From Pseudocercospora fijiensis CIRAD86 (Eukaryota; Ascomycota; Dothideomycetes; Mycosphaerellales; Mycosphaerellaceae), in the NCBI RefSeq assembly GCF_000340215.1, contig NW_006921549.1:442001-506000 (forward strand): a DNA stretch of 64,000 nucleotides, written 5' to 3'. The notes under the pieces are model-generated. The model was not told where the DNA came from and searched no databases. It worked only from the letters and a program-made list of their open reading frames with translations. The position numbers were made by a program, and so were the translations under genes. Shown here piece after piece: positions 1,413 to 62,064 of this stretch (position 1 is its first letter; each line of letters starts with the position of its first letter).

Positions 1413-1596
1413 CCGTAGCCCTCCGTAAGATTCGAAAGTATTAGAAGAGTTCTAATCTCCTAATCCGTAAAGCTCCTTTCTAACGACTTATTTACGAAAT
1501 TGCCTAGAATTATAGAACGGACCTTCGCTTCTAAGCCTCCGCGATAGGCGCCCTTTAAGAGGCTATAGAAGCCTACCTAGTTCGTATCTTCGAATA

Positions 1597-1793
1597 TATT
1601 AGGGCTAAAGAGGCTATACGTAACTAGCATATAATTAGGCCGAGTAAAGCTAGGGTCTTAGTACCTTAGGTAGGGCTTAGCGCTTAGCGTTAGGCTAACT
1701 AGCCTACCTTCCTCCTTCTCCTCCTAGTTCTCTATCGAATACTACTAGTATCTACTACTACTCTATCTACCTACTAATATAACCCTTCTTATA
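1597..1793 (+). repeat. 5' LTR of Ty3 element 1
   Basis: It starts TATTAGGGC (TG to TA by RIP) and ends TTATA (CA to TA). It differs from the 3' LTR at 8 sites, all transitions, 7 of them CpA/TpG to TpA. The CpA is still present at the 3' LTR terminus. Confidence 0.95.
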
Positions 1794-8713: not shown

Positions 8714-9224
8714 GAATATATATTTCTCTTCTACCTCTTTTCGGACTATACTAATACTATTTTAGCGGTTAACCTTATAGCTATCTACGCGAAGCGTATA
8801 ACGATTATAGATAAGGATTTTAAAGCACTCGATTAGATTCTAAAAGGCTAGAATATCTATATTCGAGATAGTGCTAGGTAGGATAGATATTCTAGTAGGA
8901 AGGATGTTCGTAGTATCGTCTATAAGCTTTTCTATATACGAAATAAGCCGCTATTATACGGCGCTATATACCGCGCACTAAATACTCTCTAAGTATATAT
9001 ATATAGTATAGTATACTTTATTAGCCGTACGGAATAGAAGTCTTCGAAAATCCCGTTAGTACTAAGGAGTTAAAAGGCCGGCTACGCTACTAGCTACGCT
9101 GCTAGGGTTTTTAAAGAACTAAAAGAAGATAGACATTCCGGTTAATTTGTATTAGTTTAGATTTTAATAAAAAGAAAATAGGGAAAAATAAGGAAGGTTA
9201 AAGAGCCTAATACTAATAGTTATA

Positions 9225-13464: not shown

Positions 13465-13483
13465 TAGACCCCGTAGTAGTTCG
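13465..13483 (+). repeat. Left terminal inverted repeat of hAT copy II
   Basis: TAGACCCCGTAGTAGTTCG is followed by GTTTAGTTTAGTTTG-type repeats. The same end occurs at 43383 and, reversed, at 10073 and 58092. Confidence 0.85.
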
Positions 13484-13760
13484 AGTTAGTTTAGTTTAGT
13501 TTGCTAAGCCGAAGATCTAGTTTAGTTTAGGTTGGCTTACTAAGCAACTATAGGATTAGCTAGTTCCAACTATAGAATTTATTAGTTTCTAAGAAGTATA
13601 AGAATATCTACCTAACTCGAAGTAAGCCCTTTATAAGATACGAGAGTATAGCCGGTAGCGTAGCCGGTATTTTTTAGTTATAGGAAGGTACTTATATAAC
13701 CCTAAATCTATAGAGGGTACTAACTAGTTAAAAGCATATATATATATATATATATATATA

Positions 13761-15793
13761 GATAGATAGATAGATATTTCATTTGCCTGTTGTAGTGCCT
13801 TTCGGCCTATGTAGGTCTGTTTCTATGTATTGTTTTAGGTAGGAAACTAACTTAGTTAGTAAAAACCTCCCTCCTGTCCTATTTATAAGTGTTGATCTTC
13901 CTCGTTTCCTTGTTTTCCTTCCTCTAGGGTACACTAGTATTATAGTTGTTACCCTCTAACTACCTTGCCTGCTACTTTGCCCTTCTTTCCCCCTCTTCTT
14001 CCCTCCTTCTTATCTACTCCTTAGTTTCCCTTACTAGTGCGAATTGTTATACAAATCCCTATTTAATAATCTACTTTACTATCCTCTTTAGGTCTTCTTT
14101 GCTCTAGATTAGCTTGTCGTATTCCCTTTCTATTACTTTTTATCTCTAATCACTTCTGCCTTCTAACTATTAAGGGCAGACTAGCAGTATATACTTAGGG
14201 TTCTAAGATTAGTAGCTATATTAGTAAGCTCTGCTTTCAATTCCTAGGACGTTTCTTCTAAATAGGTAAGATCTAAGTCTAATATGTTTAGATCTGATTT
14301 AGATAGCTAGGCTTACCTCGGCCCTGTTTAGGTCCTTATAGAGCTAGTAGTTATATTAACCAAATTTGATTAGTGCCTTTAGGGTTCCTAGTCTAACTTG
14401 TGTTTTGTTCTATTCCTGCTCCTATAGGTATCTAGCAATTGATTCTGCTAGGCTTTATTTCTCTCCCTTTAGCTTGTCTTCCTTTAGCCTTGTATTTAGT
14501 CCCTAAAGCTCTTTCTCTAGCATTTCTCTTATTAAGACTCTATATTGCTCTAAGTCTTTAACCTTCTAGGGAGTTATTTGTAGTCTATCTCGCCTCCTAG
14601 TCCTAATGCACTAGGCTTTTATCTTGTCTAGTGCCTTTTAGATAGTCTATTAGGCTAGGTATTCTATTGTCTTTGCTGCATATTGGTGTCTTAGTCCCTT
14701 AAAGTATTGTTTGACTAGTAGGATCCCTAATTCTATTTCTACTACCCTTATTAGTATAGTTTTGTATGCTCCTAGGATTTTCTTTAGGCTTTAGGTTTGG
14801 GACCTACTAACTGGTTACTTAATCCTCTTTAGTGTTTTCTCCTAGGCTATCTATATCTGTGCTCTATATAGTATTACTAGCTTGACAATTGCTTTATATA
14901 TAACTTTAGCTTTCTCGAATATAGCCCCCTATATAGAGGCTATAAGCCTATTAATAGATTGTATATTAGTATCTGCCCTCTGCTTTGCCTTCTTTACTTA
15001 TAGTCCCTAATTCAGTTTTGGATCTAGCTAGATCCCTAGTACCCTAAGCTCTGCTAATAGTTAGGTTTCAAAGCCTTAGATAGTAATTGATTGCTTTATA
15101 TTATAGGTTGATTTAGCCTTACTAAAGTGGATAAGCTAGTACTTTTCTAGGGCGAATTTTGCTCTATATCTCCTTACCTATTTTTTATACTCCTAGTGCT
15201 TCTCTTCTAGGATCTTACAGTTGGTTTCTATTGTTTTAGACTAGGCTAGGATGTTTATATTATCTACAAACCCTAATGCTAATATGTTTTTTGATTCTAG
15301 GAGTAGGAGTAGGTCTGCTATAAAGATAAGGAAGAGGATTAGGGAGAGTGTTAATCCTTAGGGGATTCCCTTTTTAGTTAGTATTGGATCTAATTTGAAT
15401 TTGCCTAGAATAAGCTATATTAATCTTTTCTATAGGAAGGACTGGATAAATTAGACTATCTAGTTTAGTATAGCTTTCTGTTTAAGTATATATAGGAGCC
15501 TTTTATAGGAGACATTGTTAAAGGCTCCTAAGATGTTAAGGGAGAGGAGGGTTACTACCTAGTTTTGACTATAGTGCTAGATATACTTGATCTATTCTGT
15601 GATTAGTTCTATAGCTATTAGTATTGACCTCTTCTTTCTTTCTCCTATCTAGCCTTTAGGAAGGATGTTCCTTTCCTCGGCAAAGGTTGTTAGCCTTTTA
15701 GCGACAATTTTTTCTAGCACCTTGCCTATTGTGTTAAGTAGGGCTATTAGTCTGTAGGCCTTAAGCTGTGTATAGTCTTCCTTCTAGGGCTTC
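13761..15793 (-). mobile_element. LINE copy 1 (5'-truncated, 3' end at left)
   Basis: It aligns along its length with the 3' part of LINE copy 2 (19751-21782). The 3' tail is a GATA repeat (13761-13775 as seen on the + strand), and the body stops at 15793 in the middle of the RT domain. It sits inside a TA microsatellite: TA runs flank both sides (13737-13760 and 15794-15813), where copy III has one uninterrupted TA run at 43667-43686. Truncation at the 5' end is typical of target-primed reverse transcription. The catalytic FVDD box of RT reads FVDN near 15255-15275. Confidence 0.9.
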
Positions 15794-15859
15794 TATATAT
15801 ATATATATATATAAGCTATTATAGTTTAGTTTAGAAACTGTACTTATTAGGTATAAATT

Positions 15860-16366
15860 TTATCCTTTCGCTCGCTGTTTAATTCCCTAACTACTCGGTA
15901 GAATGTTATTATCTAGATCTAGGTAGAACTTATCGATTTCCCTAGAAGCCCTCTTTAAAAAGTTCTAATACTTTCCTACTAAACTATTCTCTAATATTAA
16001 GTACTAGGATAGCACCTCCCTTAGTATCGGTATAGTATATAAAAGAGCTGTAAAGTAGCTCTATATAACGTTCTACTAGTTACTCGCTATACTAAGGCCG
16101 AATACTAGTTCGTTCCTTAGAACTCTTCGTTATTTAGGAGATATTAAGGATAGGGTAGGCGGTAACTTTGTATTATATAAGGAGGTAGAGGCTGCTATAG
16201 AGGAGTCCTTTAACCTATAGAAGATAGTAAAAGATATAGAGGCAGCTATAAGTCTAGGTACCTAGTTGAATTTCTAGTAGGTAGAGTATAAGGATATTTA
16301 GAAGGAGTAGTAGGTAGAGTCGCGAAGGCAGGTATATAATATAGTCTAGAAAACAGGGATAATGCC
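15860..16366 (-). pseudogene. ORF-C of the hAT element, copy II (unrecognised)
   Basis: Same 507-bp frame as 9225-9731, on the opposite strand, last gene before the left terminal repeat. The differences from copy I are transitions, and many TAG/TAA replace Gln. No known family is recognised. Confidence 0.6.
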
Positions 16367-16487
16367 TATAACTATTAGTATTAGGCTCTTTAACCTTCCT
16401 TATTTTTCCCTATTTTTATTTTATAAAAATCTAAACTAATACAAATTAACCGGAATATCTATCTTCTTTTATTTCTTTAGAAAACCT

Positions 16488-16535
16488 AGTAGCGTAGCTA
16501 GTAGCGTAGCCGGTAGCGTAGCCGGCAGCGTAGCC
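16488..16535. repeat. GCCGG/TAGCG minisatellite between H3-A and ORF-C
   Basis: Five head-to-tail units of about 11 bp of the TAGCGTAGCCGG type. Equivalent arrays are at 9061-9106, 44355-44410 and 56579-56625, with differing unit number. Confidence 0.8.
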
Positions 16536-16765
16536 GGCCTTTTTACTCCTTAGTACTAACGGAATTTTCGAAGACTTCTATTCCGTACGGCTAATAAAGT
16601 ATACTATACTATATATATATATACTTAGAGAGTATTTAGAGCGCGGTATATAGCGCCGTATAATAGCGGCTTATTTCGTATATAGAAAAGCTTATAGATA
16701 ATACTATAAATATCCTTCCTACTAGAATATCTATCCTACCTAGCACTATCTCGAATATAGATATT

Positions 16766-17451
16766 CTAGCCTTTTAGAATCTAATCGAGTGCTTTAAAAT
16801 CCTTATCTATAATCGTAATACGCTTAGCGTAGATAGCTATAAGGTTAACCGCTAAAATAGTATTAGTATAGTTCGAAAAGAGGTAGAAGAGAAATATATA
16901 TTCGAAGATACGAACTAGGGGGGCTTCTATAGCCTCTTAAAGGGCGTCTAGCGCGGAAGCTTAGAAGCGAAGGTCTAGTATATAATACTAGGCAATTTCG
17001 CGAATAAGTCGTCGGAAAGGAGCTTTATAGAGTAGGAGAGTAGAACCCTTCTAATACTTCCGAATCTTACGGAGGGCTACGGCTAAAGAAGGATTAGTAA
17101 AAAGATAGTAAGAATGCCGGCTACGCTACCGGGCCCCGGCTACGCTACCGGCTACGCTACTAGCTATAAATAGGACTTACTTCCTAGGCGCTATCGACGC
17201 TTCGTACGATTATTACTACTAGTAGCAGAAGCGCTAGTCGTCGTCTTACGTAGAGCCTTGCCCGCCGTCGTCTTACGCGGAGCCTTACTCGCGACGCCCT
17301 TTCTAGTACTAGAGCTAGCGGCAGTAGTAGCAGCCTTCTTGCGTTAATATACTATACTCGTTCTACTATTTCCGGTCTTATTACGACCCGTAGAAGTAGT
17401 AGATTCCTTCTTACGAGGCGTCGTAACTTAGTTAAGTAGACTTAGTATTAT
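16766..17451 (-). pseudogene. Histone H3-like gene A (H3-A), copy II
   Basis: This is an uninterrupted version of the gene. Exon 1 (17451-17181) gives a Lys/Arg/Ser/Thr-rich tail of about 90 residues including RKGVASKAPRKTTAGKALRK, recalling the KSTGGKAPRK tail of H3. The intron is 17180-17083. Exon 2 gives VALRKIRKY-stop-KG, KAPFRRLIREIA, LDLRF-stop-ASALDAL-stop-EAIEA and LVRIFE. Then comes a probable intron remnant, then AVNLIAIYAKRITI, IDKDFKALD and stop at 16768-16766. Canonical H3 order (alpha-N, helix 1, loop 1, helix 2, loop 2, helix 3) is preserved. Loop 1 has H3 rather than CENP-A length. Length is 686 bp, identical in copy III. It lies downstream of H3-B on the same strand. An ORF on the + strand at 17477-17659 is antisense shadow. 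Confidence 0.92.
17083..17180 (-). other. Predicted intron of H3-A copy II
   Basis: The donor GTAAGT is at 17180-17175 and the acceptor AG at 17084-17083. It holds GCCGGC dyads in a mirror arrangement (ACCGGGCCCCGG near 17121). The splice restores GTVALR. Confidence 0.8.
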
Positions 17452-17984
17452 AAAAGTCGTCGAATTAAGGAAAAAAGTGCGTTACGAAGGTATACAAAGG
17501 CGCGCGCGGAGCGAGGGTATTATAGAGGTAGTATATATAGAGCGTAGAGATATAGGTATCGATACGAAGGTTAAATATAGCGAGAGAGGTAGTATCGCGG
17601 TATCGCTAGGCAATAGAGTAAGCGTCGCGTATGCCTATATTATAGTAATATTAGAGTAAGGAAAGAAGGTAGATACGGCTAAAAAAGGCAGGTACGGCAA
17701 ACTTTAAAATATAGCCGGTATATATAGCCGGTATAGTAATAGGCGAAAGCCTCCTTTTAATAAATAGCCGGCGTAATAATAGTATCCTACTATAGTATAG
17801 ATATTCTTTAGTAATTCCCTTACTAGCTATAGTAATCTTATAAGTAACCTAGGCCTATTACTAGGAAATATAAGAAATATTAGGTAGGCTATACTAAACA
17901 AGCTAGTTATTTAGTAGGAAAAGGCCTACTACTATCTCTATATACCGGCTACGAGTGCCGGCTATCGCTCTAAATTCAACTCTA

Positions 17985-18690
17985 CCCTATCTCGGAGGCT
18001 AAGGTACCGAGCGGAAACCCTATAGCTTATATTTACTCGGTTGTCGCGGAGCGCTTATAGGTAAGGTATTAGAAAAGAGTATAAAAAGAACGAGAAGAGT
18101 ATCCTAGGATATAGGTCGTAAGTAAATAAGAGTAGTACGCCTAGTTATTTATATAGTACGTTACTCTAAATAACTAGGAGCCTATATTATCTTATACTTC
18201 GCTTATAAGACCTCGACTCTACTAATATACTATTATTCTCCTACTCGGTCGCTATCTTAATTCTTCTTCGAGTTGCCGGACTTAGTACGTATCTGTAGCT
18301 ATACAATAGCGCTACGTATTATAGAGAATTAACTCCGCCGTATCTCGAAGGCTAAGGTACCGAGCGGAAACCCTATAGCTTATATTTACTCGGTTGTCGC
18401 GGAGCGATTATAGGTAAGGTATTAGAAAAGAGTATAAAAAGTACGAGAAGAGCATCCTAGGATATAGGTCGTAAGTAAATAAGAGTAGTACGCCTAGTTA
18501 TTTATATAGTACGTTACTCTATACGACTAAGAGCCTATATTATCTTATGCTTCGCTTATAAGACCTCGACTCTACTAGTATACTATCGATCTCCTCCTCG
18601 GTCGCTAATACGCTATCTTAATTCTTCTTCGAGTTACCGGACTTAGTACGTATCTATAGCTATACAATAGCGCTACGCATTATAGAGAAT
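17985..18690 (+). repeat. 353-bp tandem duplication, copy II
   Basis: Two adjacent units share GGCTAAGGTACCGAGCGG (17998 and 18349) through TATTATAGAGAA (18319 and 18680). They differ mainly by transitions and one short indel. The first unit begins at a GCCGGCTATCG dyad. Confidence 0.9.
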
Positions 18691-18965
18691 TTCTCGTTAA
18701 AGTTTCTCTCTCGTAGGCTTGCTATCTACCTCGTAGCATAGAGGATTAAAGTGCTAATACTAAAGAATCTCCTTATAGTTAGGATACTAGGGCTCCTTAG
18801 GACCTTTATATTTTAGGTCTAAATCGAGACGTATTATAAACGTTCTATCGCCCTTTCGCTTACTACCCGCTAGGTCGCGATATACGAAGAAACTAATCTA
18901 AATATAGCTCGTCTCTATAATAGCCGGGTAAATATAGAGCGCTAGGTTTCTACTTCGTACCTTAG
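18290..18965 (-). pseudogene. Unrecognised ORF downstream of H3-B (possible C-terminal extension)
   Basis: The frame is the same as the H3-B frame and begins after a GCCGG-containing, intron-like gap (about 18970-19035, donor-like GTATCC, branch-like TTCTAAT). Readable segments are NLALYIYPAIIETSYI, YRDLAGSKRKGDRTFIIRLD, DLDLKYKGPKEP, HFNPLCYEVDSKPTREKL, and a charged coiled-coil-like VR-stop-LEEELR-stop-RISD. Stops are again at Gln-type positions. It may be a C-terminal part of the H3-B protein after splicing, or a separate gene; the sequence does not decide. Copy III holds the same frame (about 53500-54125). No family is recognised. Confidence 0.45.
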
Positions 18966-19989
18966 ATTTAGGGATAGCGCGGAGATAAAATTAGAAATAT
19001 AGCCGGCACCTATAGCCGGTAAAAGGATACGAAAATAGGCCTCCTCCTAGGTTAATCTAACGACTAAATATAATTTCTAACTAATCCGCTATAAACCGAC
19101 GCCGAATTTTAGCTAGAAGCTATATATCTTTATTTTAAATAGTAACCCGCTTCGTATAGATAGTAAGGAGGTTTAAAAGCTTAAGCTCGGTTACGAGAAA
19201 TGCCTCCGTAGCTTCCTAAAGAGTACTAATCGCCTTAGCCGTAAATCGTATACTAGACCGAAAATCTAATATAATTTCTCGGACGAGTCGCTAGAAGGGA
19301 GTCTTAGGGATTAAAAGCTCGGTCCCTCTTTTGTTTTAGAAAAGCCGGATCTAGCGAAGGGTAATAGTACCTAGTTTAAAGCGCCGCTTCTTTATCGTCG
19401 AGTCTTGCCTTATTCCCTTTTTTTTAATAGAAAGATAACTTTTCTTCGCGATAGTCTTCGTCCGCCTACTCTTTTTAGCCTTCTCCTATCTATCTAAAGC
19501 CTTCTTATTTTTCGGTACTATTTTCCGAGGAACCCCCTTCCTTCGTATATACTACGGAGAGCCTTACTCTTCCGATATATCGTTCTCGCTACGGTCTCCC
19601 TATACTTAGCTTACTTTACCCTTACCCTTTAGCCTCTAAAGATATTTATCTATACGTTTAGGCGACGAGGGTATATCGGTAGGACCTAGAAAATTAATAA
19701 GTATATAATCGTAAGGAGATACTAATACTTCTTACCTTCTAGAATAAATAGATAGATAGATAGATATTTCATTTGCCTGTTATAGTGCCTTTCGGCCTAT
19801 GTAGGTCTGTTTCTATGTATTGTTTTAGGTAGGAAACTAACTTAGTTGGTAAAAACCTCCCTCCTATCCTATTTATAAGTATTAATCTTCCTCGTTTCCT
19901 TATTTTCCTTCCTCTAGGATGTACTAGTATTATAGTTGTTACCCTCTGACTACCTTGCCTACTGCCCTACCCTTCTTTCCCCCTCTTCT

Positions 19990-22900
19990 TCCCTCCTTCT
20001 TATCTACTCCTTAGTTTCCCTTACTAGTACGAATTGTTGTATAAATCCCTGTTTAATAATCTACTTTACTATCCTCTTTAGGTCTTCTTTACTCTAGATT
20101 AGCTTATCGTATTCCCTTTCTATTGCTTTTAGTCTCTAATTACTTCTGCCTTCTAACTATTAAGGGTAGACTAGTAGTATATACTTAGGGTTCTAAGATT
20201 AGTAGCTATATTAGCAAGCTCTACTTTCAATTCCTAGGACGTTTCTTCTAAATAGGTAAGATCTGAGTCTAATATGTTTAGATCTGATTTAGATAGCTAG
20301 GCTTGCCTCGGCCCTGTTTAGGTCCTTATAGAGCTAGTAGTTATATTGACTAAATTTGATTAGTGCCTTTAGGGTTCCTAGTCTAACTTGTGTTTTGTTC
20401 TATTCCTACTCCTATAGGTATCTAGCAATTAATTCTGCTAGGCTTTGTTTCTCTCCCTTTAGCTTGTCTTCCTTTAGCCTTATATTTAGTCCCTAAAGCT
20501 TTTTCTCTAGCATTTCTCTTATTAAGACTCTATATTGCTCTAGGTCTTTAACTTTCTAGGGAGTTATTTATAGTCTATCTCGCCTCCTAGTCCTAATATA
20601 CTAGGCTTTTATCTTATCTAGTGCCTTTTAGATAGTCTACTAGGCTAGGTATTCTATTGTCTTTGCTGTATATTAGTGTCTTAGTCCCTTGAAGTATTGT
20701 TTAACTAGTAGGATCCCTAACTCTATTTCTACTACCCTTATTAGTATAGTTTTGTATACTCCTAGGATTTTCTTTAGGCTTTAGGTTTAGGACCTGCTAA
20801 CTAGTTGCTTAATCCTCTTTAGTGTTTTTTCCTAGGCTATCTATATCTGTGCTCTATATAGTATTGCTAGCTTGACAATTGCTTTATATATAACTTTAGC
20901 TTTCTCGAATGTAGCCCCCTATATAGAGGCTATAAGCCTATTAATAGATTGTATATTAGCATCTACCCTCTACTTTGCCTTTTTTACTTATAGTCCCTAA
21001 TTCAGTTTTGGATCTAGCTAGATCCCTAGTACCCTAAGCTCTGCTAATGGTTAGGTTTTAAAGCCTTAGATAGTAATTGATTACTTTATATTATAGGTTG
21101 ATTTAGCCTTACTAAAGTAGATAAGCTAGTATTTTTCTAGGGCGAATTTTACTCTATACCTCCTTACCTATTTTTTATACTCCTAGTACTTCTCTTCTAG
21201 GATCTTGCAATTGGTTTCTATTGTCTTAGACTAGGCTAGGATGTTTATGTTATCTATAAACCCTAATGCTAATATGTTTTTTAATTCTAGGAGTGGAAGT
21301 AGGTCTACTATAAAGATAAGGAAGAGGATTAGGGAGAGTATTAATCCTTAGGGAATTCCCTTTTTAGTTAATATTAGGTCTAATTTGAATTTGCCTAGAA
21401 TAAGCTATATTGATCTTTCCTATAGGAAGGACTAGATAAATTGGACTATCTAGTTTAGTATAGCTTTCTATTTAAGTATATATAGGAGCCTTTTATAGGA
21501 GATATTGTTAAAGGCTCCTAAGATATTAAGGGAGAGGAGGGTTGCTACCTAATTTTAACTATAGTGCTAGATATACTTAATCTATTCTATAATTAGTTCT
21601 ATAGCTGTTAGTATTGACCTCTTCTTTCTTCCTCCTATCTAGCCTTTAGGAAGGATGTTCCTTTCCTTAGTAAAGGTTATTAGCCTTTTAGCGATAATTT
21701 TTTCTAGCACCTTGCCTATTATATTAAGTAGGGCTATTGGTCTATAGGCCTTAAGCTATGTATAGTCTTCCTTCTAGGGCTTCCTTAGTACTACTGTTAG
21801 GGACTTCCTAAATAGTCTTAGGTAGTGTCCTAGTGCTAGGCTTTATAAAAAGATATTAGCTAGTGCTAGGGCTAGCCCCTTCCTATATGCTTTTAGAAGT
21901 TTATTGTAGATCTTGTCTTCTCCTAGTGCCTTATTGCCTAGAATTTTCTTTAGGATCCTTTTAATAGTTTCGGGTTTGACCTAGGTGTCTCTTAGTATAC
22001 CTAGTAGTAGAGTCTCTTATTCTTTCTCCTTTATGTCTAATAGGTCTGCTTATACTTTTCTATAGAAGAAGTGTTAGCCTAGGGCTCTTACTTTCCCTTC
22101 TATTGTAGTCTATATTTGTCCTTATTAGTCTATAATGTCCGGGAATTGTAGTAGTATGTCCTTGTCCTATTTAGGTCTCTTTGCCTATTTAGCTATCCTC
22201 TATATCTCCTCTAGTTTCTTTATAATCATTCCTATTATAGATCTCTATTCTTGTATCTTGTCTTTCTTAATCTAGATCTTCTTTTCTTAGTAGGCTTTGT
22301 TATAGTTGTCCTATACTTCCTAGGTATAGGTTTGTATCTACTGCCTCCTAGCCTTTCTTACTACTTTAACCTTCCTTATATACTTACTAGTCTAGTATAG
22401 TTGCTAGTATAGTGAATGTTTCTTTACTAGGGTATGCTTTCTAGCTACCTATTTTAGGATTCCTATTAGTTCTTCTACTGCCTTATTAATGTCCTCTAGC
22501 CTTAGTAGGTGCTTTATTAAGAGTTCCTCTAGTTTTAGGTCCCTTTCTAGTTCCTCCCTAATCCTACCCTATTAGGCACCTTTCTAGTTAAGCTTCTCCT
22601 CTAGTTCCCTTTCCTAATTAGCTTAGATATTTAGCTCAATCTATACCGGGAAGTGGTCTAATGATTCTTCTAGTTCCTAGTTGACCCTGCATCTTGTAAT
22701 CCTGTTCCTAATCTAATATAATGCAAAGTATAGGTCTAGTATACTACTGCTTCCTCTTGCCTCCTAAGTAACTAGTCCCTTTAGGGTAACAATTTCTATT
22801 CCTTCCCTCTCTAATATATCAATTAGTCTTCCTACTAGGAAGTAGTAAGCTAGGGTAAAGTCTAAGCCCTAGAGGGGGTAGTAGAGGTTGAAATCCCTAA

Positions 22901-23335
22901 GTAGGATTTAGTAGGTGTTCCCCTAGATAACTCTAGGTAGTCTTTCTAGGGTTTTTAGTTAGGTACTGCTTCTTAAGTCTAGTAGTAGGTTGTATATATA
23001 GTAGACTTAGAGTATACCTTAGGATGTCTCTACTTGAACTAATATTAGGTCCCTATCCTCCTATAGTATAGCCTGCTAGGTTTCTATATCTATCTCCTTA
23101 CTAATATAGATATATGTCCTTAGGGCTCCCTAGTTATAGATAATTAAGTAGTATCTTAGGTCTTTAACTGTTGCTAGTCTCTTTATATATAGGTTAAGCT
23201 AGGGCTCTTAGATTACAATAATGTAATGTTCTTTTAGGTTTAGTGCTTAAAGGAAGCTCCTCTACACCTTGTCTTTACTCTTATTAACATTGTACTATAT
23301 AATGTTTAGTAATATTGCAATGTTTATTAGGTTTT
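19990..23335 (-). pseudogene. ORF2 of LINE copy 2: endonuclease and reverse transcriptase
   Basis: Reading leftward, the endonuclease starts near 23335 (ATLLNII-stop-YN then KEHYIIAI-stop-EP, the AIQEP box). The RT carries KPQKEDYIQLKAYRPIALLN-like and LSLNILGAFNNIS-like motifs and a FVDN catalytic box near 21230-21255, with the second Asp changed to Asn. TAG/TAA stops occur throughout at Gln/Trp codons. The left limit is approximate. Confidence 0.85.
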
Positions 23336-23339
23336 ATCT

Positions 23340-24616
23340 ATATCATTTCCCTATAAGTTTTCCTTTAGTCTTCCCTTACTTTAGACTAACATTTAACTAA
23401 GCTTTGTCTGCCCTACTTCCTTTCCTATAATATTAAGGTATCTTAGTCTCCCTAGTTGCTAGTAACTCTCTTATGTTAGTAAGGCCCTAAATATAAACCT
23501 ATTATCTTGCCTAGACCTCTTTTATAGTACTTAGCTAGGTTGCTTCTATACCTAGCTGCCCTAGCTTGTTATATATCTTTTTAGTATATTGATTCTAGCT
23601 TCCTTTACCTTCCTAGCTGCCTATATTCTTACTAGGCATTCCTTCGCCTAAGAGGGGTATCTTTTAGTATAGTATGTATATCTTGCTTCTCCTTTGTATG
23701 CTTTGTATTCTTTGACCTAGTAATCCCCTATATAATAGGAGTAGGTGTTAGTTATCTTTATACACTTAGCTGCTAAGTGTCTATAGTGTTAGTATTTAAA
23801 GCACTATATTATCCTATAGTTGCTTCTATATATCTCTGTTTCCAATCTTTTAAAGTCCTAGAACAACCCCTAGTCTAGCACTATATTAGCTTACTCTATA
23901 CTCCCTACCTAGATAATTAGGGAAGACTGCTTCTTAGTCTCTTCGATTTTCCTTTTAATTTATGCTACTTTTGTAATCTTTAGGCCTAGGCATATAGCTT
24001 AGTTTTGTCTCTATAGGCTCTTAATATCCTATTCTTCCTTAAAGCTTCTTGTTATACTATAGGCTATAATTATAAATTACTGTTAGGAGACCTTTACTGT
24101 TTTCCCTATCTTAGTTGTCTATTCTTTTTGTATTTCTAGCTTCTTTTTGTCCTACTCCTATGCTATAAACAGCTTGATTACCCCTTTACCTTCGTTCCTA
24201 GCCCTAATTACCTCTTTAATTGTAATTCTTTCTATAATCTCTTTTCCTATAAGTCCTTAGATTTCCTTTTGCTCCTATAGGTCCGTAATATAGACTCTAA
24301 CAACTATCCTCGGGGGTTTTAGCGCCTCCTCACTAGCTACTGCTACCTAGGTGCGGTAGTTTAGGCTTGTCTCCTATTGTTTCTTCGTAATCTTTACTGC
24401 GACTATATTAGCTACCTTTGTGATTACGTAGCTTGCCTAGTTATAGATTGCTTTCAGTCCTCTAAGGAGTTCTAAGATTATTATCCTATATGCCCTCTTA
24501 GGGGTTCTTCTATCTTCCGCCTTTAGCACCTCCTCTACCCTAGTATATAGCGCTTTCTATTCGTCCTCCCTTCCTTCTTGACTGTCTTCCCTTCGTCTCT
24601 GATTGTTCGCTACCAT
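23340..24616 (-). pseudogene. ORF1 (gag-like) of LINE copy 2
   Basis: ATG at 24616-24614 starts MVANNQRRREDS. The C-terminal part has degenerate CCHC zinc knuckles near 23830-23640, as in the clearer copy at 60784. ORF1 proteins of this LINE group bind nucleic acid. Ends in a different frame from ORF2. Confidence 0.8.
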
Positions 24617-24909
24617 TCCTCTAGTATTATATACCTCCTCTATATTTCTAGAATAAATAGTCTTCTATTAAACCGCCTTAGTAGGTTATCGTTAGATTCG
24701 AATAAAGGATAGTAGCTTAAGGAAGGGGAGGTAGCCGGCTTAGGAAGGCCCGAAGAGCCGAATCCTTAAGGTATATTTATCTTTAAGAATATAGGGAAAA
24801 GGAAGAAGGAGAGGAAGAGCGAATAGAGAATTAGAAATAGTCTATAGGTAAGCGGGGTCGGTTACTATAGCAACTAGTCTATTTAGGTCCTAGGAATTCG
24901 AAATACATT

Positions 24910-24945
24910 TCGGATATATACCGGCTATATACGCCGGCTATATTA
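24910..24945. repeat. GCCGGC dyads after the hAT transposase
   Basis: ACCGGCTATATACGCCGGCTATATTACC overlaps the presumed end of the transposase frame. It may form a 3'-terminal intron or spacer. Equivalent at 55183-55208. Confidence 0.6.
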
Positions 24946-27700
24946 CCTTATACGTAAACGCTTCGTCTCCTTAAAGCTACTCTAAGCCTATATACGTTTC
25001 CGCTTCTCGACCTAGTATCGCCTTCTACCTCCGCCCTCCTCTTCTTCGTTATCGCTAATTAGGGTTTCGCTTAGACTAAATTTCGTATTCTCTTTGCGCT
25101 CCTAGGTTTCTTCGATCTTAAGGTTTTCTAATTCCTCGATTAACTCCTTTAGTATAATCTTTAGTAACCTACCTTAGCGATTCTAGTAGAGGAGATAGTA
25201 TCGGAATACTATAATAGATTCGAAGGTAATAGGCGAGTATATTCGATTAAAGCGGCCCTAGTAACGAGCGATACTAAAAGACCTCTTATAGCCTATACCT
25301 ACGCTCGGGATAGCGAGGACGTCCCGAGCGACCGACGCTATCGTTAGAAACTTAGGCTCTAACTGCTACTATATAGCGAGAATATCGTCTCCGAATTCGT
25401 CTAGAAGACCGGTAAGATCTAGAGATTATTAGCCCTCTTTCCGAGCCTACGGGTTTATACTTGCTCGCGCGCCGATAGAGATCGAACTCTTCTTTATTTA
25501 CTTTAGTAGTTGCTTCCTCTTCTACCTCTACTTCCTACCTACGAAATAGGTATAATATCGGAGCCTTCTAAACCTTCTTTTTCTTTATAGGAGCTGTATT
25601 TAGACTAGTTTCTTTCCGACGCTTATAGAATATCTTTTCTAGAATAGTCTAGTAATGCTTCGGCTATACCTCGTCCGCCTTCTATTCCGGCCTCTACTAG
25701 TATATATCCTTTTCTACCGGGTTAAGTAAGTACGTAACGCTATAGATATCCCCGAACGACTTGAAGGTAGTACTATAATATTTGTATAACTTAGTATAGG
25801 AGGTGTCTATAGCTTTCGTTATAGCTACTTTCTAGGGAACGCTCTTCTTAGCTAGCTTAGCTACGGTTTCCTCGAGCTCGTTAAAGAGCTAGTTATAGTA
25901 CGTAAAAATAAGGTAGATCGTTAGTCCTCGGGTTCTTCTAATCGTAGTAGTAACCTTCGCGTAATGCTTACTAATATCGACGAGATACTCCGCTTAGCGC
26001 TATTCGGCGGCGGTAAGGCCGAGCTACTTAATACCCTCGGAACTCTAATAGATCTCGAGAGCGGTACGTAAAGTATATTACCTCGTAACTATATAGAAAG
26101 TCGAATCGAACCGGGTTTTAACGTCTTAGGTAAAACGGAGTAGGCGCTAAGGAGGCCGCTTTTGCTATCGCTTATTCTATACGATATTCTAGATATCGGT
26201 TTTAGGGCGCTCGATTAGGTTCTTTTAAATAGCCTCGAATCGGTTATATCTCTATAAGCTCGAGTTCGTATATATTACTAGACGACGAAGCTAGAGAAAA
26301 AGAGTTAGAACTATACTAGGTTGCCGGCTATAGGTACTAGCTACGGACAAAAGTTATACCTTATATAAAACGAGAGCGAGGCTCTCTACTTTATCCCGTC
26401 TTATTACTATAACGAGTTTCTCGACTTTCGACTTTGCTTTATCCTTATCTAGGATCTTCTATTAGTCGTCGTTTAATAGTACAATTTTAAGCGTCTTAAA
26501 GAGGGCTCGGATCGCGATTTAAACTATATAAGCGAGGTAGGGAAACTTCTATAGGGATATAACTAGCAACGACGTCGGCTCCGATTTAATAGGGCTAGAG
26601 ATATTACTAGGCTCCTCTTTATCGTTATTATCGTACGTATTATCGTACGTATCCGGAATCGTAGCGAGCTTAATATTCGGAAGATTAAGCTAGATTATAG
26701 ACCTTATAATCTCCTCTACGTACTCGACCCTATCGATATAATTAGTAATTTTAAAGATATATACGAGTGAATTATATATACAACGCCTTATATAATGTTC
26801 GATTATTACTAGCGTTGTCCGTAGTAATCGAGATTAGTTTCGTTATTACGCTAACCCTGTCTATTGCTATATAGACAAGCTTCGCTATATCCTTACTAGT
26901 ATAGGAACCTAGAATTTTAGGGAATCCGATTATAAGTTCCTAGAGTTTCTAATCCGAATTAATAAAGTATAGTATAATCGAGAGGAAGGAGGCTCTTATA
27001 GTCCGGCTTAACTAGCTATCGATAGTAATAGCTACTCGGCGAGTATTACGGAGGATCTCCCGAATGTCGTCTAACGTAGCCTCTTTATTCTTTTCGAATA
27101 TAATACGCTAGGTTATCGCGCCGAGAAATAGGGGAGGGTAGTTTATAAGATATAGGTATATCTTCTATATAGACTCCCTTTCGTAGAAGTCTTCCGGAAG
27201 ACCGTTTATAGCTAGCATTTCGTTTGCTAGTTGCTTAAAGTCTTCGGGGGAGAAATCGGTAGCCTTTAATCCTAGAGCTTCCTTAAGCGTAGCCTATAAT
27301 AATTAGCTAGATCTCTACGGTTAATTAAAGTAGCCGGAATCTATAGCCGGAATCTGTAGCCGGCAGCTATAGCCGGCATTTTAGAAGACGTACCTCTTTC
27401 TAGAACGCTATATCTATATTAACTCTCCTCTCTCCTTAAGATTCCCGACACTGTTTAGAATAGAGATAGTTCGTAGGCGATAAGTTCCTATCCCCTAGTT
27501 TCGGGTATTTTAAGATTAAACTATAGAAGTTATAGACAATTACTAGTTAACCTTTAAGTCGAGAAGTCGTATAACGGTATAATGCCCCCTCTATAAAGAA
27601 CTTCTAGAATATATCCGTTCGCTCCTTACTCCCCTATTATATCGAGTACTTCTAGAGTTTATACTCCTTTAAACGTAAGTATAAAAGGAACTATATCTTA
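24943..27700 (-). pseudogene. hAT transposase (copy II)
   Basis: Reading leftward, the RNase H-like core at about 27070-26800 shows RRVAITIDS-stop-LSRT, ASFLSIILYFINSD, IGFPKILGSYTSKDIA and ISITTDNASNN, the hallmark GsHtG...TDNASNN series of hAT transposases. The C-terminal dimerisation domain (about 25380-25190) reads PKFLTIASVARDVLAIPSVG then SFSIARY and FESIIVFRYY, matching the hAT dimerisation motif. An acidic tail (DNEEEEGGG) leads to TAA at 24943. The start is uncertain; a Gln/Trp-broken frame continues to about 27700, interrupted by a GCCGG array (27338-27382) that looks like an intron. Copy III retains only the C-terminal 629 bp. It catalyses cut-and-paste transposition in intact members. 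Confidence 0.9.
27338..27382. repeat. GCCGG minisatellite within the hAT transposase gene
   Basis: Four units built on ATAGCCGGAATCTG/ATAGCCGGCAGC break the transposase frame. By analogy with the H3-A intron this is probably intronic, but I could not fix splice sites. Confidence 0.65.
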
Positions 27701-28160
27701 TAGACCTATTAATTAAACTGCTCTATATACTCGGGTTTCTAAAGATACGCCTAGCTAGCCTTTTCGAAGATTTCCGGGTTAATACTCGATATTCTTATAT
27801 CTCCGAACAACCTTCTACTTAGACTCCGTAAAGGTAAGGACTAGGTAGTAGTACCCTATAATAAATTCCTACTACTAGGATTCGGAGAGGATAAATCTAG
27901 CCCTAATCGTCGTCTAGGACTCGATAGGCTCGAAGGTAAGTATACGACCTCCTCTCGACGTTATCGCAATCTCGCTCGTATACTAGACTGTTTCGACTTT
28001 CGACTATCGTCTCGTTATTACCCTTCCTAGTATAGCGCCTAGTATATATACAATATCGGTCGGTATGTTTTAAGGTTTCGTACGGTAAGGTAAGGACTTA
28101 GGAGTAGTAGATATATACTAGTAGCTATAGGGAAACACCCTTTCTTTTATAGTATCGTAT
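27701..28160. other. Spacer upstream of hAT transposase
   Basis: I see no clear coding frame. It probably holds the 5' flank or an N-terminal part of the transposase gene whose start is masked by RIP. Confidence 0.4.
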
Positions 28161-28164
28161 CGTT

Positions 28165-28290
28165 AGGAATAGCTAGGTAGTAAATAGCTAGCTACCTTTT
28201 TTTTGTTTCCTAGCTACCTAACTACTAGATTTTTTTTCCTAGCTACCCTAGCTAGCCTAACTACTAGAATTTCTTTCCTAGCTACCCTAA
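28165..28290 (+). repeat. Short tandem repeat CCTAGCTACCTAACTACTAGA
   Basis: Three imperfect units of about 40 bp, each with a T-run followed by CCTAGCTACC(C)TAACTAC. Between the transposase and the ORF-D gene. Confidence 0.8.
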
Positions 28291-29700
28291 CTACCTAAAT
28301 TTTGCCTTCTATATAGCGGCTCTCTCCTACTAACGGAACCGAGCTACTATACCTAACGAATCTAAGCTCGTTTTTAGTCTTAATCTATCCTCTTTCGGTA
28401 TAAGATACTCGATAAGTAAATACTTAGGCCGAGTCTAACTACGAAACCTAAGACTAACTAATAGCTCTATTAACTAATCCTAATCCTCGAACTCCTTCCG
28501 CTTCTTAGTAAAGACCTTAAAGAGCGCTCGAGCTTCTTCGGGTACCTACGGAGTAGTCGAGATAAAGCCGTATCGCTAAAATAGGTAATCCTTCGGAGGC
28601 TTATATAGAGATTTAGAGAATTCTAACGCTAACCTATCCTACTAGTAGCTTAGATTCCGGATATAAGCCCTCTCTACCTTAGTAAAGATTTTATATAGTA
28701 GTAGTACTCTGCCTTCGAGAAACGCTTTCTATTTACCTATTAGTATCTGCCGGCTACGAACGCCGGCTATATATACCGAGTATAGAATAATTACCTATAC
28801 CCCTTCCTCCTATAGTAACACTTCTACCGTCCCTAGATACCTAGCCCCGATCGCATTAATCGTAAGCTACTTTGCCTTTATAGACGCAAAGGCTTCGCTC
28901 TAATACTAATAAAGAGACTTCTACTCTATATCGAGGATATAAAGACGACTAGTCTCGATTCTAATCCTTACTAGCTTTTCGTAGTAGCTTTAACTATAAT
29001 TTTCTAGATTGATAGGACTTATACCTTAGCCCTTTACTAGTATCTCGTCTCTTTAACTGTACTCGATCTACTCCTAGCGCTTATCGTCTATAGCGTTAGG
29101 CCCTAAGACTATACCTATTACTAGATCGACGTATAGTATCTCCTCGCTTTTTTTAGTTCCTTTATTCGTAGTATTAAGCTCTATCGCGGTATCCTAAACT
29201 CTAGTATTGTTGTTCTCGGCTATCTAAACATCTCCGTTACTATCGGTCGTATCGATAGAGGTAGCGGCTATAGGTCTAAATGCTATTAGTTAACGTGTTA
29301 AAGAAAAATATACCGGCTATAGCTGCCGGCTACGGCTGCCGGCTATAGCTACTAGCTACGGCCGCTAGCTAGATTAACTTACGCTACTAGAACTTTACGC
29401 TCGAAAACTAGCCGCAATTCTTTCCTCCTCTTAGCCTTCTCTTAGGTTGTCTTCTTATTCCAACCTTTACTTTTTTCTATAGGCGCTAGCTATCGATAGA
29501 ATGCCTTATTCCGCGCCTTTCTTCTCTTATCCTTAGCTCTTTTATCCTTATCTATCTTCTCCTTTCTCTCGTAGTCTTATACAGAATTCTTCTTCGTAGA
29601 GTACTCCTCTTTAGTCTTACGCTTTTTAGTTAGACGCTTAGGCAAAACAAACTCGCGGTCTTTAGTTCTATCTTCTGTTTAGCGCGGGGCGCGCTTCTCT
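28290..29700 (-). pseudogene. ORF-D of the hAT element: Lys-rich protein gene with introns (unrecognised)
   Basis: First gene from the right end. Exon 1 (about 29695-29393) encodes a very Lys/Arg/Glu-rich segment (LPKRLTKKRKTKEEYSTKK, KDKRAKDKRRKARNKAFY). An intron of 110 nt (29392-29283; GTAAGT ... AACTAATAG) contains GCCGGC units. The following frame runs to about 28290: TAATSIDTTDSNGDV, EILYVDLVIGIVLGP, LVRIRIETSRLYILDIE, PEEARALFKVFTKKRKEFED, RPKYLLIEYLIPKEDRLR. A second short intron-like gap (28776-28738) also holds GCCGGC. All stops are RIP-type. No family recognised. The basic N-terminus suggests nucleic acid or chromatin association, but that is inference. Confidence 0.55.
29283..29392 (-). 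other. Predicted intron in ORF-D with GCCGGC array
   Basis: Donor GTAAGTT (29392-29386), branch/acceptor AACTAATAG (29291-29283). The array of GCCGGCTA(C/T)(A/G)GCT units lies at 29311-29370. Confidence 0.65.
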
Positions 29701-29835
29701 CTTACTATTATAAGGGAAAGGGGCGGGGGCGCAGCGTATAGTAGTTATTGTCGGTATAGGTATAGAGGAAGAAGTTAAAAGTATAAGAATATCGCGAAGC
29801 CCTAATTGTTGCCGCCTACGTAACGTTATATAGGT
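29701..29835. other. Spacer 5' of ORF-D
   Basis: A GC-rich stretch (GGGGCGGGGGCGC near 29720) is followed by AT-rich sequence. It is the likely promoter side of the ORF-D gene, but no defined motif was found. Confidence 0.3.
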
Positions 29836-30430
29836 AAGCTTTCGCAACTACGGCAACTACGCCCCGGTAATAGTAACTACGCCCTAGCAACGGCAACTAC
29901 GCCCTAGCAACGGTAACTACGCCCTAGCAACAGTAATAAAGCGTAGTAAATACAACCTAGTAACTATTATAGCCGGCAATCGTAGCCGGCAGTCGAATAA
30001 GAGTGTCTTTATAGCAAAATGTTACGGTTACTCGCGACAGATCGTTAAGTGACTTCTTATTACGTACAAGCCGAGGCTTCTTTAGAGAGGCTAATACAAG
30101 CGGGAGGCAGAGACAGAATAATTGGTATAAAGGTAATTCCAATTAGTAAGTAGGTAATATAAGTTAAACGCCTCGAGCTATAAGGGCATTCCGGCGTTCC
30201 TAAATACAAAGGAGATATCTTGTCTATAGTCGTAAGCGACGTAAGCGACGCTGTCGCTCTCGACCGCTCCTATCGCTCCTAGTAAGATAGAGCGACAGCT
30301 TAGCCTACTAGTCTTAGCGTCGCTCTAAGATTATATAAGGACTCTAACTAATTAGATCCGTAATACAAAACTACGCCCTAGTAACGGCAACTACGCCCTA
30401 GTAACGGCAACTACGCCCTAGCAACGGCAA
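29836..30430 (+). repeat. 20-bp minisatellite GGCAACTACGCCCTAGCAAC, split by a solo LTR
   Basis: About five units at 29846-29935 and three more at 30369-30430. An accompanying segment ATTATAGCCGGCAATCGTAGCC...AAGAGTGT appears on both sides of the LTR (29966-30008 and 30459-30501). The array was therefore already a larger tandem duplication before the LTR arrived. It lies just inside the right end of the hAT element. Confidence 0.85.
30020..30365 (+). repeat. Solo LTR (346 bp), copy 1
   Basis: It begins TGTTACGGTTAC and ends CCGTAATA, with a 5-bp target duplication CAAAA at 30015-30019 and 30366-30370. A second copy of identical length and different TSD lies at 41919-42264. No internal region is present, so it is the product of LTR-LTR recombination. 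The start resembles the LTR start TGTTACGGGG of Ty3 element 2, but the two are otherwise different. The ORF on the minus strand overlapping its start (29957-30142) is not a gene. Confidence 0.93.
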
Positions 30431-30501
30431 AAGACCGTAGTAAATGTAACAGAGTTACTATTATAGCCGGCAATCGTAGCCGGCAGTCGAATAAGAGTGT
30501 C

Positions 30502-30649
30502 CTTATAGTAAAACTAATACAGTCTCTAGTTCAAACTAGGAATCTATATAGTTCGAAAAAACCAAACCGGAACTAGGGAGCTAGTTCGCCGCTAAGAAAC
30601 CAAACTATATACGTTTGGTAGTTCGGAAACCGAACCACTGCGGGGTCTA
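30502..30649 (-). repeat. Right end and terminal inverted repeat of the hAT element
   Basis: It ends GAACCACTGCGGGGTCTA, the inverse of the left end. The 100 bases inside carry GGTTTG/CAAACC-type motifs (for example TCGAAAAAACCAAACCGGAA), typical of hAT subterminal repeats. It is followed by the octamer TTTATCGT (30650-30657). Confidence 0.8.
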
Positions 30650-51929: not shown

Positions 51930-52615
51930 CTAGCCTTTTAGAATCTAATCGAGTGCTTTAAAATCCTTATCTATAGTCGTAATACGCTTCGCGTAGATAG
52001 CTATAAGGTTAACCGCTAAAATAGAATTAGTATAGTTCGAAAAGAGGTAGAAGAGAAATATATATTCGAAGATACGAACTAGGGGGGCTTCTATAGCCTC
52101 TTAAAGGGCGTCTAGCGCGGAAGCTTAGAAGCGAAGGTCTAGTATATAATACTAGGCAATTTCGCGAATAAGTCGTCGGAAAGGAGCTTTATAGAGTAGG
52201 AGAGTAGAACCCTTCTAATACTTCCGAATCTTACGGAGGGCTACGGCTAAAGAAGGATTAGTAAAAAGATAGCAAGAATGCCGGCTACGCTACCGGGCCC
52301 CGGCTACGCTACCGGCTACGCTACTAGCTATAAATAGGACTTACTTCCTAGGCGCTATCGACGCTTCGTACGATTATTACTACTAGTAGTAGAAGCGCTA
52401 GTCGTCGTCTTACGTAGAGCCTTGCCCGCCGTCGTCTTACGCGGAGCCTTACTCGCGACGCCCTTTCTAGTACTAGAGCTAGCGGCAGTAGTAGCAGCCT
52501 TCTTGCGTTAATATACTATACTCGTTCTACTATTTCCGGTCTTATTACGACCCGTAGAAGTAGTAGATTCCTTCTTACGAGGCGTCGTAACTTAGTTAAG
52601 TAGACTTAGTATTAT
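51930..52615 (-). pseudogene. Histone H3-like gene A (H3-A), copy III
   Basis: 686 bp, the same length as copy II with only a few base differences. It has the same basic tail, same intron with GCCGG units, and same Gln-to-stop pattern in VALRKIRKY, IREIA, DLRF and the helix 2 motif. Start ATA in place of ATG. Confidence 0.92.
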
Positions 52616-54252: not shown

Positions 54253-55043
54253 CTAATCCGCTATAAACCGACGCCGAATTTTAGCTAGAAGCTATATACC
54301 TTTATTTTAAAGAATAACCCGCTTCGTATAGATAGTAAGTAGGTTTAAAAGCTTAAGCTCGGTTACGAGAAATGCCTCCGTAGCTTCCTAAAGAGTACTA
54401 ATCGCTTTAGCCGTAACTCGTACACTAAACCGAAAGTCTAATATAATTTTTCGGACGAGTCGCTAGAAGGGAGTCTTAGGGATTAAAAGCTCGGTCCCTC
54501 TTTTATTTTAGAAAAGCCGGATCTAGCGAAAGGTAATAGTACCTAGTTTAAAGCGCCGCTTCTTTATCGTCGAGTCCTACCTTATTCCCTTTTTTTTAAT
54601 AGAAAGATAATTTTTCTTCGTAATAGCCTTCGTCCGTCTATTCTTTTTAGCCTTCTCCTATCTACCTAAAGCCTTCTTAGTTTTTAGTACTATTTTCCGA
54701 GGAACCCCTTTCCTTCGTATATACTATAGAGAGTCTTACTCATCCGATATCTCGTTCTCGCTACGGTCTCCCTATACCTAGCTTACTTTACCCTTACCTT
54801 TTAGGCTCTAAAGATATTTATCTACGTATTTAGGCGACGAGGGTATATCGGTAGGACCTAGAAAATTAATAAGCCTATAATCGTAAGGAGATATTTATAC
54901 TTCTTACCTTCTAGAATAAATAGTCTTCTATTAAACCGCCTTAGTAGGTTATCGTTAGATTCGTATAAAGGATAGTCGCTTAAGGAAAGGGAGGTAGCCG
55001 GCTTAGGAAGGCCCGAAAAGCCGAATCCTTAAGGTGTATTTAT
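54253..55043 (-). pseudogene. Histone H3-like gene B (H3-B), copy III, uninterrupted
   Basis: Exon 1 (55043-54908) starts at ATA (mutated ATG) followed by NTP-stop-GFG, then SYYPLFES and RRFNRRLFILEG. A 50-nt intron (54907-54858, GTAAGA ... TTAATTTTCTAG) joins GAA-G to GT-CCT. Exon 2 holds the Lys-rich tail and the H3 fold: FKLGTIT, TELLIPKTPF-stop-RLVRK, VTAKAIS and the helix 2/3 region to 54253. The LINE target site TTCTAGAATAAATA is intact here, which proves that the copy II interruption is an insertion. Length 791 bp. Confidence 0.9.
54858..54907 (-). other. Predicted 50-nt intron in H3-B
   Basis: Donor GTAAGA, acceptor TTCTAG, with TTATTAAT as a RIP-altered branch site. Splicing joins the frame of the N-terminal exon to the H3 frame. 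In copy II the same intron lies at 19687-19736, immediately beside the LINE insertion site. Confidence 0.7.
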
Positions 55044-55837: not shown

Positions 55838-56358
55838 CGCGAGTAAGGCTCCGCGTAAGATAACGGCGGGCAAGGCTCTACGTAAGACGACGACTAGCGC
55901 TTCTACTACTAGTAGCAATAATCGTACGAAGCGTCGATAGCGCCTAGGAAGTAAGTCCTATTTATAGCCGGTAGCGTAGCCGGTAGCGTAGCCGGTAGCG
56001 TAGCCGGCATTCTTACTATCTTTTTACTAATCCTTCTTTAGCCGTAGCCCTCCGTAAGATTCGAAAGTATTAGAAGAGTTCTAATCTCCCAATCCGTAAA
56101 GCTCCTTTCTAACGACTTATTCGCGAAATTGCCTAGAATTATAGAACGGACCTTCGCTTCTAAGCCTCCGCGATAGGCGCCCTTTAAGAGGCTATAGAAG
56201 CCTACGTATTTCGTATCTTCGAATATATATTTCTCTTCTACCTCTTTTCGGACTATACTAATACTATTTTAGCGGTCAACCTTATAGCTGTCTACGCGAA
56301 GCGTATAACGATTATAGACAAGGATTTCAAAGCACTCGATTAGATTCTAAAAGGCTAG
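55838..56358 (+). pseudogene. Histone H3-like gene A (H3-A), copy IV, 5' truncated
   Basis: It lacks the first part of the tail. It then has SKAPRKITAGKALRK, the GCCGG-containing intron (GTAAGTCC at about 55949), and VALRKIRKY-stop-KSSNLPIRKAPF-stop-RLIREIA-like sequence with the same Gln-type stops. After a probable intron come the AVNLIAVYAKRITI-type motif and the stop at 56358. Confidence 0.88.
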
Positions 56359-60775: not shown

Positions 60776-60783
60776 TAAAAAAA

Positions 60784-62060: not shown

Positions 62061-62064
62061 AGAT

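What the first reader, a model, noticed from the sequence alone, without database searches (positions are those of the whole stretch)
16766..17451. A histone H3 gene (H3-A) carried inside a hAT transposon
The frame encodes alpha-N to helix 3 of histone H3 (VALRKIRKY, KAPF, REIA, DLRF, ALQEAIEA-type, AIYAKRITI), preceded by a long SKAPRK-type tail. In copy I all five conserved H3 glutamines are TAG/TAA, the expected RIP product of CAG/CAA, so the pre-RIP gene was a real H3. It lies between the terminal repeats of a hAT element and is present in all four copies in the window. I know of no described hAT element with histone cargo. Its role is inference: it might mark or repack element chromatin, or dilute host H3 against silencing.
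Basis: partly seen in the sequence, partly recalled or inferred. Interest (0 to 1): 0.96.

Follow-up and report, generated by a model that had tools for sequence, protein, structure and literature searches.

The report
Histone H3 genes inside dead transposons
The window holds mutated remains of a histone H3 gene carried by a jumping DNA element; this was published in 2019 for what is very probably the same fungus, though the sequence shows details, such as introns, that change part of that account.

Summary
The H3-A observation is real. On the minus strand, 17361-16766 is a RIP-killed histone H3 gene. It is one of two H3 genes (H3-A, and cargo 1 at 19719-19102) in a ~9.9 kb hAT-type element with inverted termini starting TAGACCCC and 8-bp target duplications. 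Genome-wide, PF00125 gave 772 candidates, 150 scored, 148 of these with stops; the host H3 is intact on contig C6. This is not new: Dhillon et al. 2019 (PMC6710886) described it in Pseudocercospora fijiensis (784 H3-like copies, 471 elements, original on scaffold 6), and Manning et al. 2013 (PMC3538342) a hAT element with H3 in Pyrenophora. What I add: (1) the published '16-aa insertion' in the second H3 looks like a 48-nt intron, and another intron lies one codon from host intron 2, against capture of a spliced transcript for this gene; (2) the two cargo H3s group together, apart from host H3 and CenH3 (support 95/96); (3) a weak hAT dimerisation match that the paper could not find; (4) tests for selection on the H3 frames are suggestive but mixed. 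Novelty: already known. That the cargo ever served the element is inference.

The parts
17181..17361 (-). H3-A tail exon (SKAPRK-type repeats); true start codon not determined
   Evidence: blastn with the A1 tail and translation
17083..17180 (-). H3-A intron 1, 98 nt, GTAAGT...CTAAT...TTTAG with a minisatellite inside; one codon from host H3 intron 2
16900..17082 (-). H3-A core exon (TVALRKIRKY ... RIFE)
   Evidence: PF00125 E=5.1e-15
16852..16899 (-). H3-A intron 2, 48 nt (the published '16-aa insertion'); donor reads ATATAT in this copy
16766..16851 (-). H3-A last exon (VNLIAIYAKRITIIDKDFKALD.ILKG, then stop)
19102..19719 (-). cargo 1: second, different H3 gene, one frame, no intron seen
   Evidence: PF00125 E=3.7e-21
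25222..27200 (-). transposase region of the element (corresponds to A1 3074-5052); the dimerisation stretch is mapped from A1 copies to about 25386-25267
24646..30649 (-). 5' part of a family A element; terminal repeat at 30649
15809..19751 (-). middle to 3' part of the element with both H3 genes
13465..13674 (-). 3' end of an element, terminal repeat at 13465
51939..52244 (-). H3-A core, second copy
54274..54894 (-). cargo 1, second copy
56044..56349 (+). H3-A core, third copy
1415..1599 (+). H3-A core, fourth copy, first piece
8714..8842 (+). H3-A core, fourth copy, second piece

Best explanation
[quoted passage not shown] Shown here: the H3 identity, the element ends with 8-bp target duplications, three sequence families (A, B, C), RIP-type mutation, and two intron-like stretches in H3-A whose removal restores H3. 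Inferred: one ancestral H3 was captured and later duplicated inside the element; for H3-A the gene structure favours capture of genomic DNA (or of a source gene with introns) over capture of a spliced transcript; while the element was active the H3 genes were transcribed and spliced. Whether they helped the element or only rode along is open; I lean to passengers (about 0.55) over helpers (about 0.35). The copies I read in the window make no histone today.
For: PF00125 in copy I (E=5.1e-15) and in cargo 1 (3.7e-21). 150 of 772 candidates scored genome-wide, 150 over the cut-off, 148 with stops inside (TAG/TAA; one also has TGA). Termini and 8-bp duplications CAAAGTAC, GTTACGAG, GAAGTAAA in 3 of 3 copies with both ends read, plus two short elements with the same termini. 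815 of 846 variable columns among 14 family A copies are transitions, 629 of them C/T before A or G/A after T. Intron 1: GTAAGT...TTTAG in 18 of 18 copies; intron 2: 48 nt in 18 of 18, GTATGT donor intact in 2 of 18, its first G kept in 7 of 14 A and 0 of 4 B copies. Dimerisation profile PF05699 matches 14 of 14 family A copies at E<=0.1, best 2.2e-4. Lengths, TIR, TSD, two H3s per element, copy number and the place of the host H3 agree with PMC6710886.
Against: DUF659 was found in 0 of 14 copies of the stretch I tested, though the paper reports it; the first member's PF05699 score (17 bits) is below the curated cut-off of 21.4; no transposase relative was found. Intron-like patterns as such are not rare in the element (6 in sense, shuffle mean 2.8), the donor of intron 2 is RIP-changed in 16 of 18 copies, and no transcript was seen. 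The species name is inferred from agreement with the paper.
Confidence: 0.9

Rival explanations
1. Passive passenger (the published view): a host H3 transcript or retrocopy was captured by the hAT element, amplified with it and killed by RIP; it never did anything for the element.
For: Cargo 1 runs through both the host intron 2 position and the core without an intron. Transversions by codon position give no sign of constraint for cargo 1 (A v B 4/1/5, p=0.21) or for H3-A between A and the window copies (6/3/3, p=0.8). Copy I has a proline within helix 2 (EAPLV). PMC6710886 argues for it.
Against: H3-A has intron-like stretches. H3-A A v B has excess third-position transversions (8/7/16, p=0.02). 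Fixed A/B indels in H3 coding parts are multiples of three in 5 of 5, against 9 of 36 elsewhere beyond position 5100 (p=0.003), but 3 of the 5 are in cargo 1, by whose PF00125 score the loci were picked.
Confidence: 0.55
2. Working gene of the element: the H3 genes were spliced, translated variants that helped the transposon, for instance by making nucleosomes with tails that lack the usual K9/K27 methylation contexts.
For: Two H3 genes are kept in families A and B, and cargo 1 also in C. Frame-keeping indels and the A v B transversions above. No ARKS/ARKT motif in the A1 tails as printed (read by eye). An unrelated hAT element with H3 and ESTs for it exists in Pyrenophora (PMC3538342, passages).
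Against: The mixed and partly biased selection tests above; no expression evidence here; H3-A in the window copies has decayed beyond RIP.
Confidence: 0.35
3. Host DNA spread by segmental duplication.
For: The window is full of long direct and inverted repeats.
Against: Shared termini, different 8-bp duplications, and unrelated flanks at 14 of 14 family A right ends; the host H3 locus on C6 lies in non-RIPed sequence (TpA/ApT 0.58 in L035 against 1.88 in copy I).
Confidence: 0.01

Closest known systems
H3-carrying hAT element of Pseudocercospora fijiensis, Dhillon et al. 2019 (PMC6710886; parts 1-5 of 7 read)
   Same: Length 9.5-9.9 kb, 8-bp TSD, TIR of about 20 bp, one or two H3-like sequences per element, all extra copies RIP-killed, original H3 of 136 aa with two introns on scaffold 6, 784 copies against 772 candidates here. 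Very probably the same genome.
   Different: The paper reads the 16-aa insertion as a mutation, sees no introns, concludes that a transcript was captured, and finds DUF659 but no dimerisation domain. Here: intron-like stretches in H3-A, a weak dimerisation match, no DUF659 match in the stretch tested.
H3L in the hAT element of Pyrenophora tritici-repentis, Manning et al. 2013 (PMC3538342; passages seen)
   Same: hAT element with transposase and an H3-like gene between its termini.
   Different: 5.6 and 2.3 kb, about 26 nearly identical, mostly intact copies with ESTs; no sequence similarity between the elements according to PMC6710886 (not tested here).
Transduplication by plant DNA transposons (Pack-MULE type; as mentioned in both papers, otherwise recalled)
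   Same: Host gene pieces carried between terminal inverted repeats.
   Different: Varied cargo, as recalled; here one cargo type in two copies beside a transposase region.

Membership tests
histone H3 | core histone profile over its cut-off | tested here: met
   H3-A core 56.2 bits, cargo 1 76.1 bits, cut-off 26.4
histone H3 | closer to H3 than to CenH3 | tested here: met
   H3-A 58/83 to host H3 against 48/83 to host CenH3; cargo 1 49/86 against 46/86, a narrow margin
hAT superfamily | 8-bp target-site duplication | tested here: met
   3 of 3 copies with both ends read
hAT superfamily | short terminal inverted repeats | tested here: met
   TAGACCCCG.AGTAGTTCGG at both ends
hAT superfamily | transposase with C-terminal dimerisation domain | tested here: inconclusive
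   PF05699 in 14 of 14 family A copies at E<=0.1, best 2.2e-4; the first member is below the curated cut-off
hAT superfamily | DUF659 domain as reported in PMC6710886 | tested here: not met
   0 of 14 copies of A1 2897-3640; RIP damage and the choice of stretch limit this, and the paper reports the domain in 277 of 471 elements
RIP-inactivated repeat | CpA to TpA transitions | tested here: met
   629 of 815 transition columns in that context
element of PMC6710886 | H3 captured as an intron-free transcript | tested here: not met
   intron-like stretches in H3-A in 18 of 18 copies; cargo 1 shows none
element of PMC6710886 | identical terminal sequence | not testable with these tools
   the sequence is in a figure and a supplement that I did not see

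The most novel reading that the evidence does not exclude
The H3 genes were working, spliced genes of the transposon: one captured H3, taken with introns, duplicated into two specialised H3 variants whose tails lack the K9/K27 methylation contexts and which helped the element against heterochromatin until RIP overtook it. With the unrelated Pyrenophora element, this would be a repeated strategy of fungal hAT elements.
Probability: 0.3. Interest if true: 0.75.

Novelty: already known. Interest (0 to 1): 0.33.

Why it matters
The find itself is in print, so its worth is as a correction and a test case. If the second H3 kept introns, the published capture route changes. If the H3 frames were kept by selection, a transposon carrying its own nucleosome part becomes a testable counter to heterochromatin silencing.

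Tried and rejected
Segmental duplication: rejected by shared termini and distinct 8-bp duplications. Plain 16-aa insertion: less likely than an intron, since the GTATGT donor is intact in 2 of 18 copies, CTAAT and TTTTAG are present in 18 of 18, and removal gives exact H3 length. For intron 1 the CTAAT signal is in 17 of 18 (B_L025 reads CTAGT). Caution: the pattern as such occurs 6 times in sense in A1, shuffle mean 2.8, maximum 9, so the case rests on place, frame and conservation. Cargo 1 as a CenH3: rejected, slightly closer to H3 and outside the CenH3 group. Top hit P0062 (177 bits) is a plant protein with a doubled H3 core, not a relative of the element. Transposase relatives: none of 3437 candidates at E<=0.001. 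PDB search with the dimerisation profile: 2 flagellins at E about 0.8, chance. Eight of the genome's 47 dimerisation matches (L009-L016) do not align to A1 or B1; the other 39, and the 21 DUF659 matches, were not compared. Transversion tests on cargo 1 alone: no signal.

Selection bias: loci were taken from the top of the PF00125 list, whose matches are mainly cargo 1, so intact cargo 1 frames are favoured. H3-A was not used for choosing; its own fixed A/B coding indels are 2 of 2 multiples of three. I read 14 A, 4 B and 2 (partial) C copies of hundreds.

Unexplained: intron 2 has 0 transversions in 48 positions in each of the three comparisons A-B, A-window and B-window, while the H3-A exons have 31, 12 and 33 in 261.

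One search failed with a script error and was rerun.

Full report
What is there. The window is C18:442001-506000 of a genome of 73,937,190 bases in 30 contigs. On the minus strand, in the H3-A region, the tail reads GVASKAPRKTTAGKALRKTT in one frame and the core VALRKIRKY.KGSTLLLYKAPFRRLIREIA...AIYAKRITIIDKDFKALD in another. The core of copy I passes the Pfam core-histone profile (E=5.1e-15). H3-A core sequence lies at four places in the window, and a second, different H3 gene (cargo 1) at two, 19719-19102 and 54894-54274.

The element. I fetched about 10 kb around 20 PF00125 matches: 18 with stops, plus the two without stops, the host H3 (L035) and CenH3 (L034) loci. Comparison gave families A (14 copies) and B (4 copies); three stretches upstream completed the left ends. 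The element is 9922 nt in A1, 9531 in A2 and about 8.6 kb in B1. The flanks repeat 8 bp in 3 of 3 copies with both ends read: CAAAGTAC, GTTACGAG, GAAGTAAA. A third family, C, is represented by L040 and L041, about 89% to A. Order in A1: transposase region about 2400-5100, cargo 1 5643-6263, H3-A about 8030-8627. The hAT dimerisation profile hits 14 of 14 family A copies at E<=0.1, best 2.2e-4, which PMC6710886 could not identify; DUF659, which it reports, I found in 0 of 14 copies of the stretch tested.

RIP. Among 14 family A copies 815 of 846 variable columns are transitions, 629 of them C/T before A or G/A after T. At the H3 glutamines of H3-A, 18 copies read: Q55 TAG 18; Q68 TAA 14, TAG 4; Q76 TAG 14, GTC 3, ATC 1; Q85 TAA 13, TAG 4, CAA 1; Q93 TAA 16, TAG 1, CAA 1. 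In copy I four of five are stops and Q68 is CGA.

Introns. Host H3 (C6) has introns at TAR|KSTGG and within KP(G|G)TVALRE (read by eye). H3-A has GTAAGT...TTTAG between RLG and TVALRE in 18 of 18 copies, 79-116 nt, with a variable minisatellite inside. That is one codon from host intron 2. Inside the core a 48-nt stretch sits between FE(T) and (CG)VNL in 18 of 18 copies; its donor reads GTATGT in L026 and L027, its first G is kept in 7 of 14 A and 0 of 4 B copies, and the usual change is the TpG to TpA that RIP makes. Removing it gives FE-SV-NLIAIYAKR against FE-DT-NLCAIHAKR in the host. Its 48 nt equal the 16-aa insertion that PMC6710886 presumes to be a mutation. That paper concludes from the absence of introns that a transcript or retrocopy was captured. 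Cargo 1 fits that; H3-A does not. The transposase region also has an intron-like stretch, A1 4810-4855, between stretches read in different frames, and the 1-nt A/B indel at 4817 falls in it. I found no paper that makes the intron point in searches (open PMC subset only).

Relationship of the two H3s. Core identities: H3-A to host H3 58/83, to host CenH3 48/83; cargo 1 49/86 and 46/86; cargo 1 to H3-A 49/81. In a tree of 27 rows the six cargo rows are parted from the 21 others by a branch with support 95/96 (midpoint root). Branches are long and RIP bias is shared, so this is moderate support for one capture followed by duplication.

Was the cargo selected? On transversions only, which RIP does not make, by codon position 1/2/3: H3-A A v B 8/7/16 (p=0.02); cargo 1 A v B 4/1/5 (p=0.21); cargo 1 v H3-A 20/13/24 in A (p=0.08) and 20/15/28 in B (p=0.02); host H3 v H3-A 14/9/20 in A (p=0.04) and 16/14/19 in B (p=0.2); host H3 v cargo 1 21/14/22 in A (p=0.2) and 19/13/24 in B (p=0.06). 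H3-A of B v window copies 8/10/15 (p=0.09), of A v window copies 6/3/3 (p=0.8), which speaks against constraint, as does a proline in helix 2 of copy I. No correction for many tests was made. Fixed A/B indels in H3 coding parts are multiples of three in 5 of 5, against 9 of 36 elsewhere beyond position 5100 (p=0.003), while intron 1 has +1 and -1. Three of the five are in cargo 1, by whose score the loci were picked, so I count this as suggestive only. Overall: mixed.

What is known. PMC6710886 (read parts 1-5 of 7) reports for P. fijiensis 784 H3-like copies in 471 elements, 133 full-length elements of 9.5-9.9 kb, a 20-bp TIR and 8-bp TSD, all copies inactivated by RIP except the original of 136 aa with two introns on scaffold 6, and the event in five further species of Cercospora, Pseudocercospora and Sphaerulina. 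My numbers agree, so the genome is very probably that one. PMC3538342 (passages) reports the first case, in Pyrenophora tritici-repentis, and asks whether the variant H3 alters chromatin. The finding is therefore already known. What I add is the introns, the dimerisation stretch, the grouping of the two H3s and the mixed selection evidence.

Noticed in passing
window 30649 and 58092: The 5' end of one element (flank ACGATAAA) and the 3' end of another piece (flank ACGATAAA) carry the same 8-mer, lie 27 kb apart in opposite orientation, and both border very AT-rich DNA (31-35 kb, 58-61 kb): probably one insertion split by an inversion between element copies.
   Followed up: partly
window 19752-24644 (-): Insertion inside the element with a reverse transcriptase match (RVT_1, E=1.6e-18); 13754-15793 repeats its low end over 2040 nt at 94.6%, as a truncated LINE-like copy would, and 60783-64000 holds an inverted copy.
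   Followed up: partly
window 1600-8713: A 7.1 kb insertion splits the fourth H3-A copy exactly in the core; 205-nt direct repeats near its ends (1595-1799, 8515-8719) suggest an LTR element.
   Followed up: partly
L025 7002-7384 and L036 4136-4508 (both on the H3-sense strand): Short elements of about 0.37 kb with the same termini and their own 8-bp duplications sit inside family B copies: non-autonomous (MITE-like) relatives of the H3 element.
   Followed up: partly
L034 (C5:606604 region): An intact CenH3 (CENP-A) gene of the host with introns elsewhere than in H3.
   Followed up: partly
window 16899-16852 and family A/B counterparts: Intron 2 of H3-A shows no transversion in 48 positions between families while its exons do; unexplained.
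   Followed up: no
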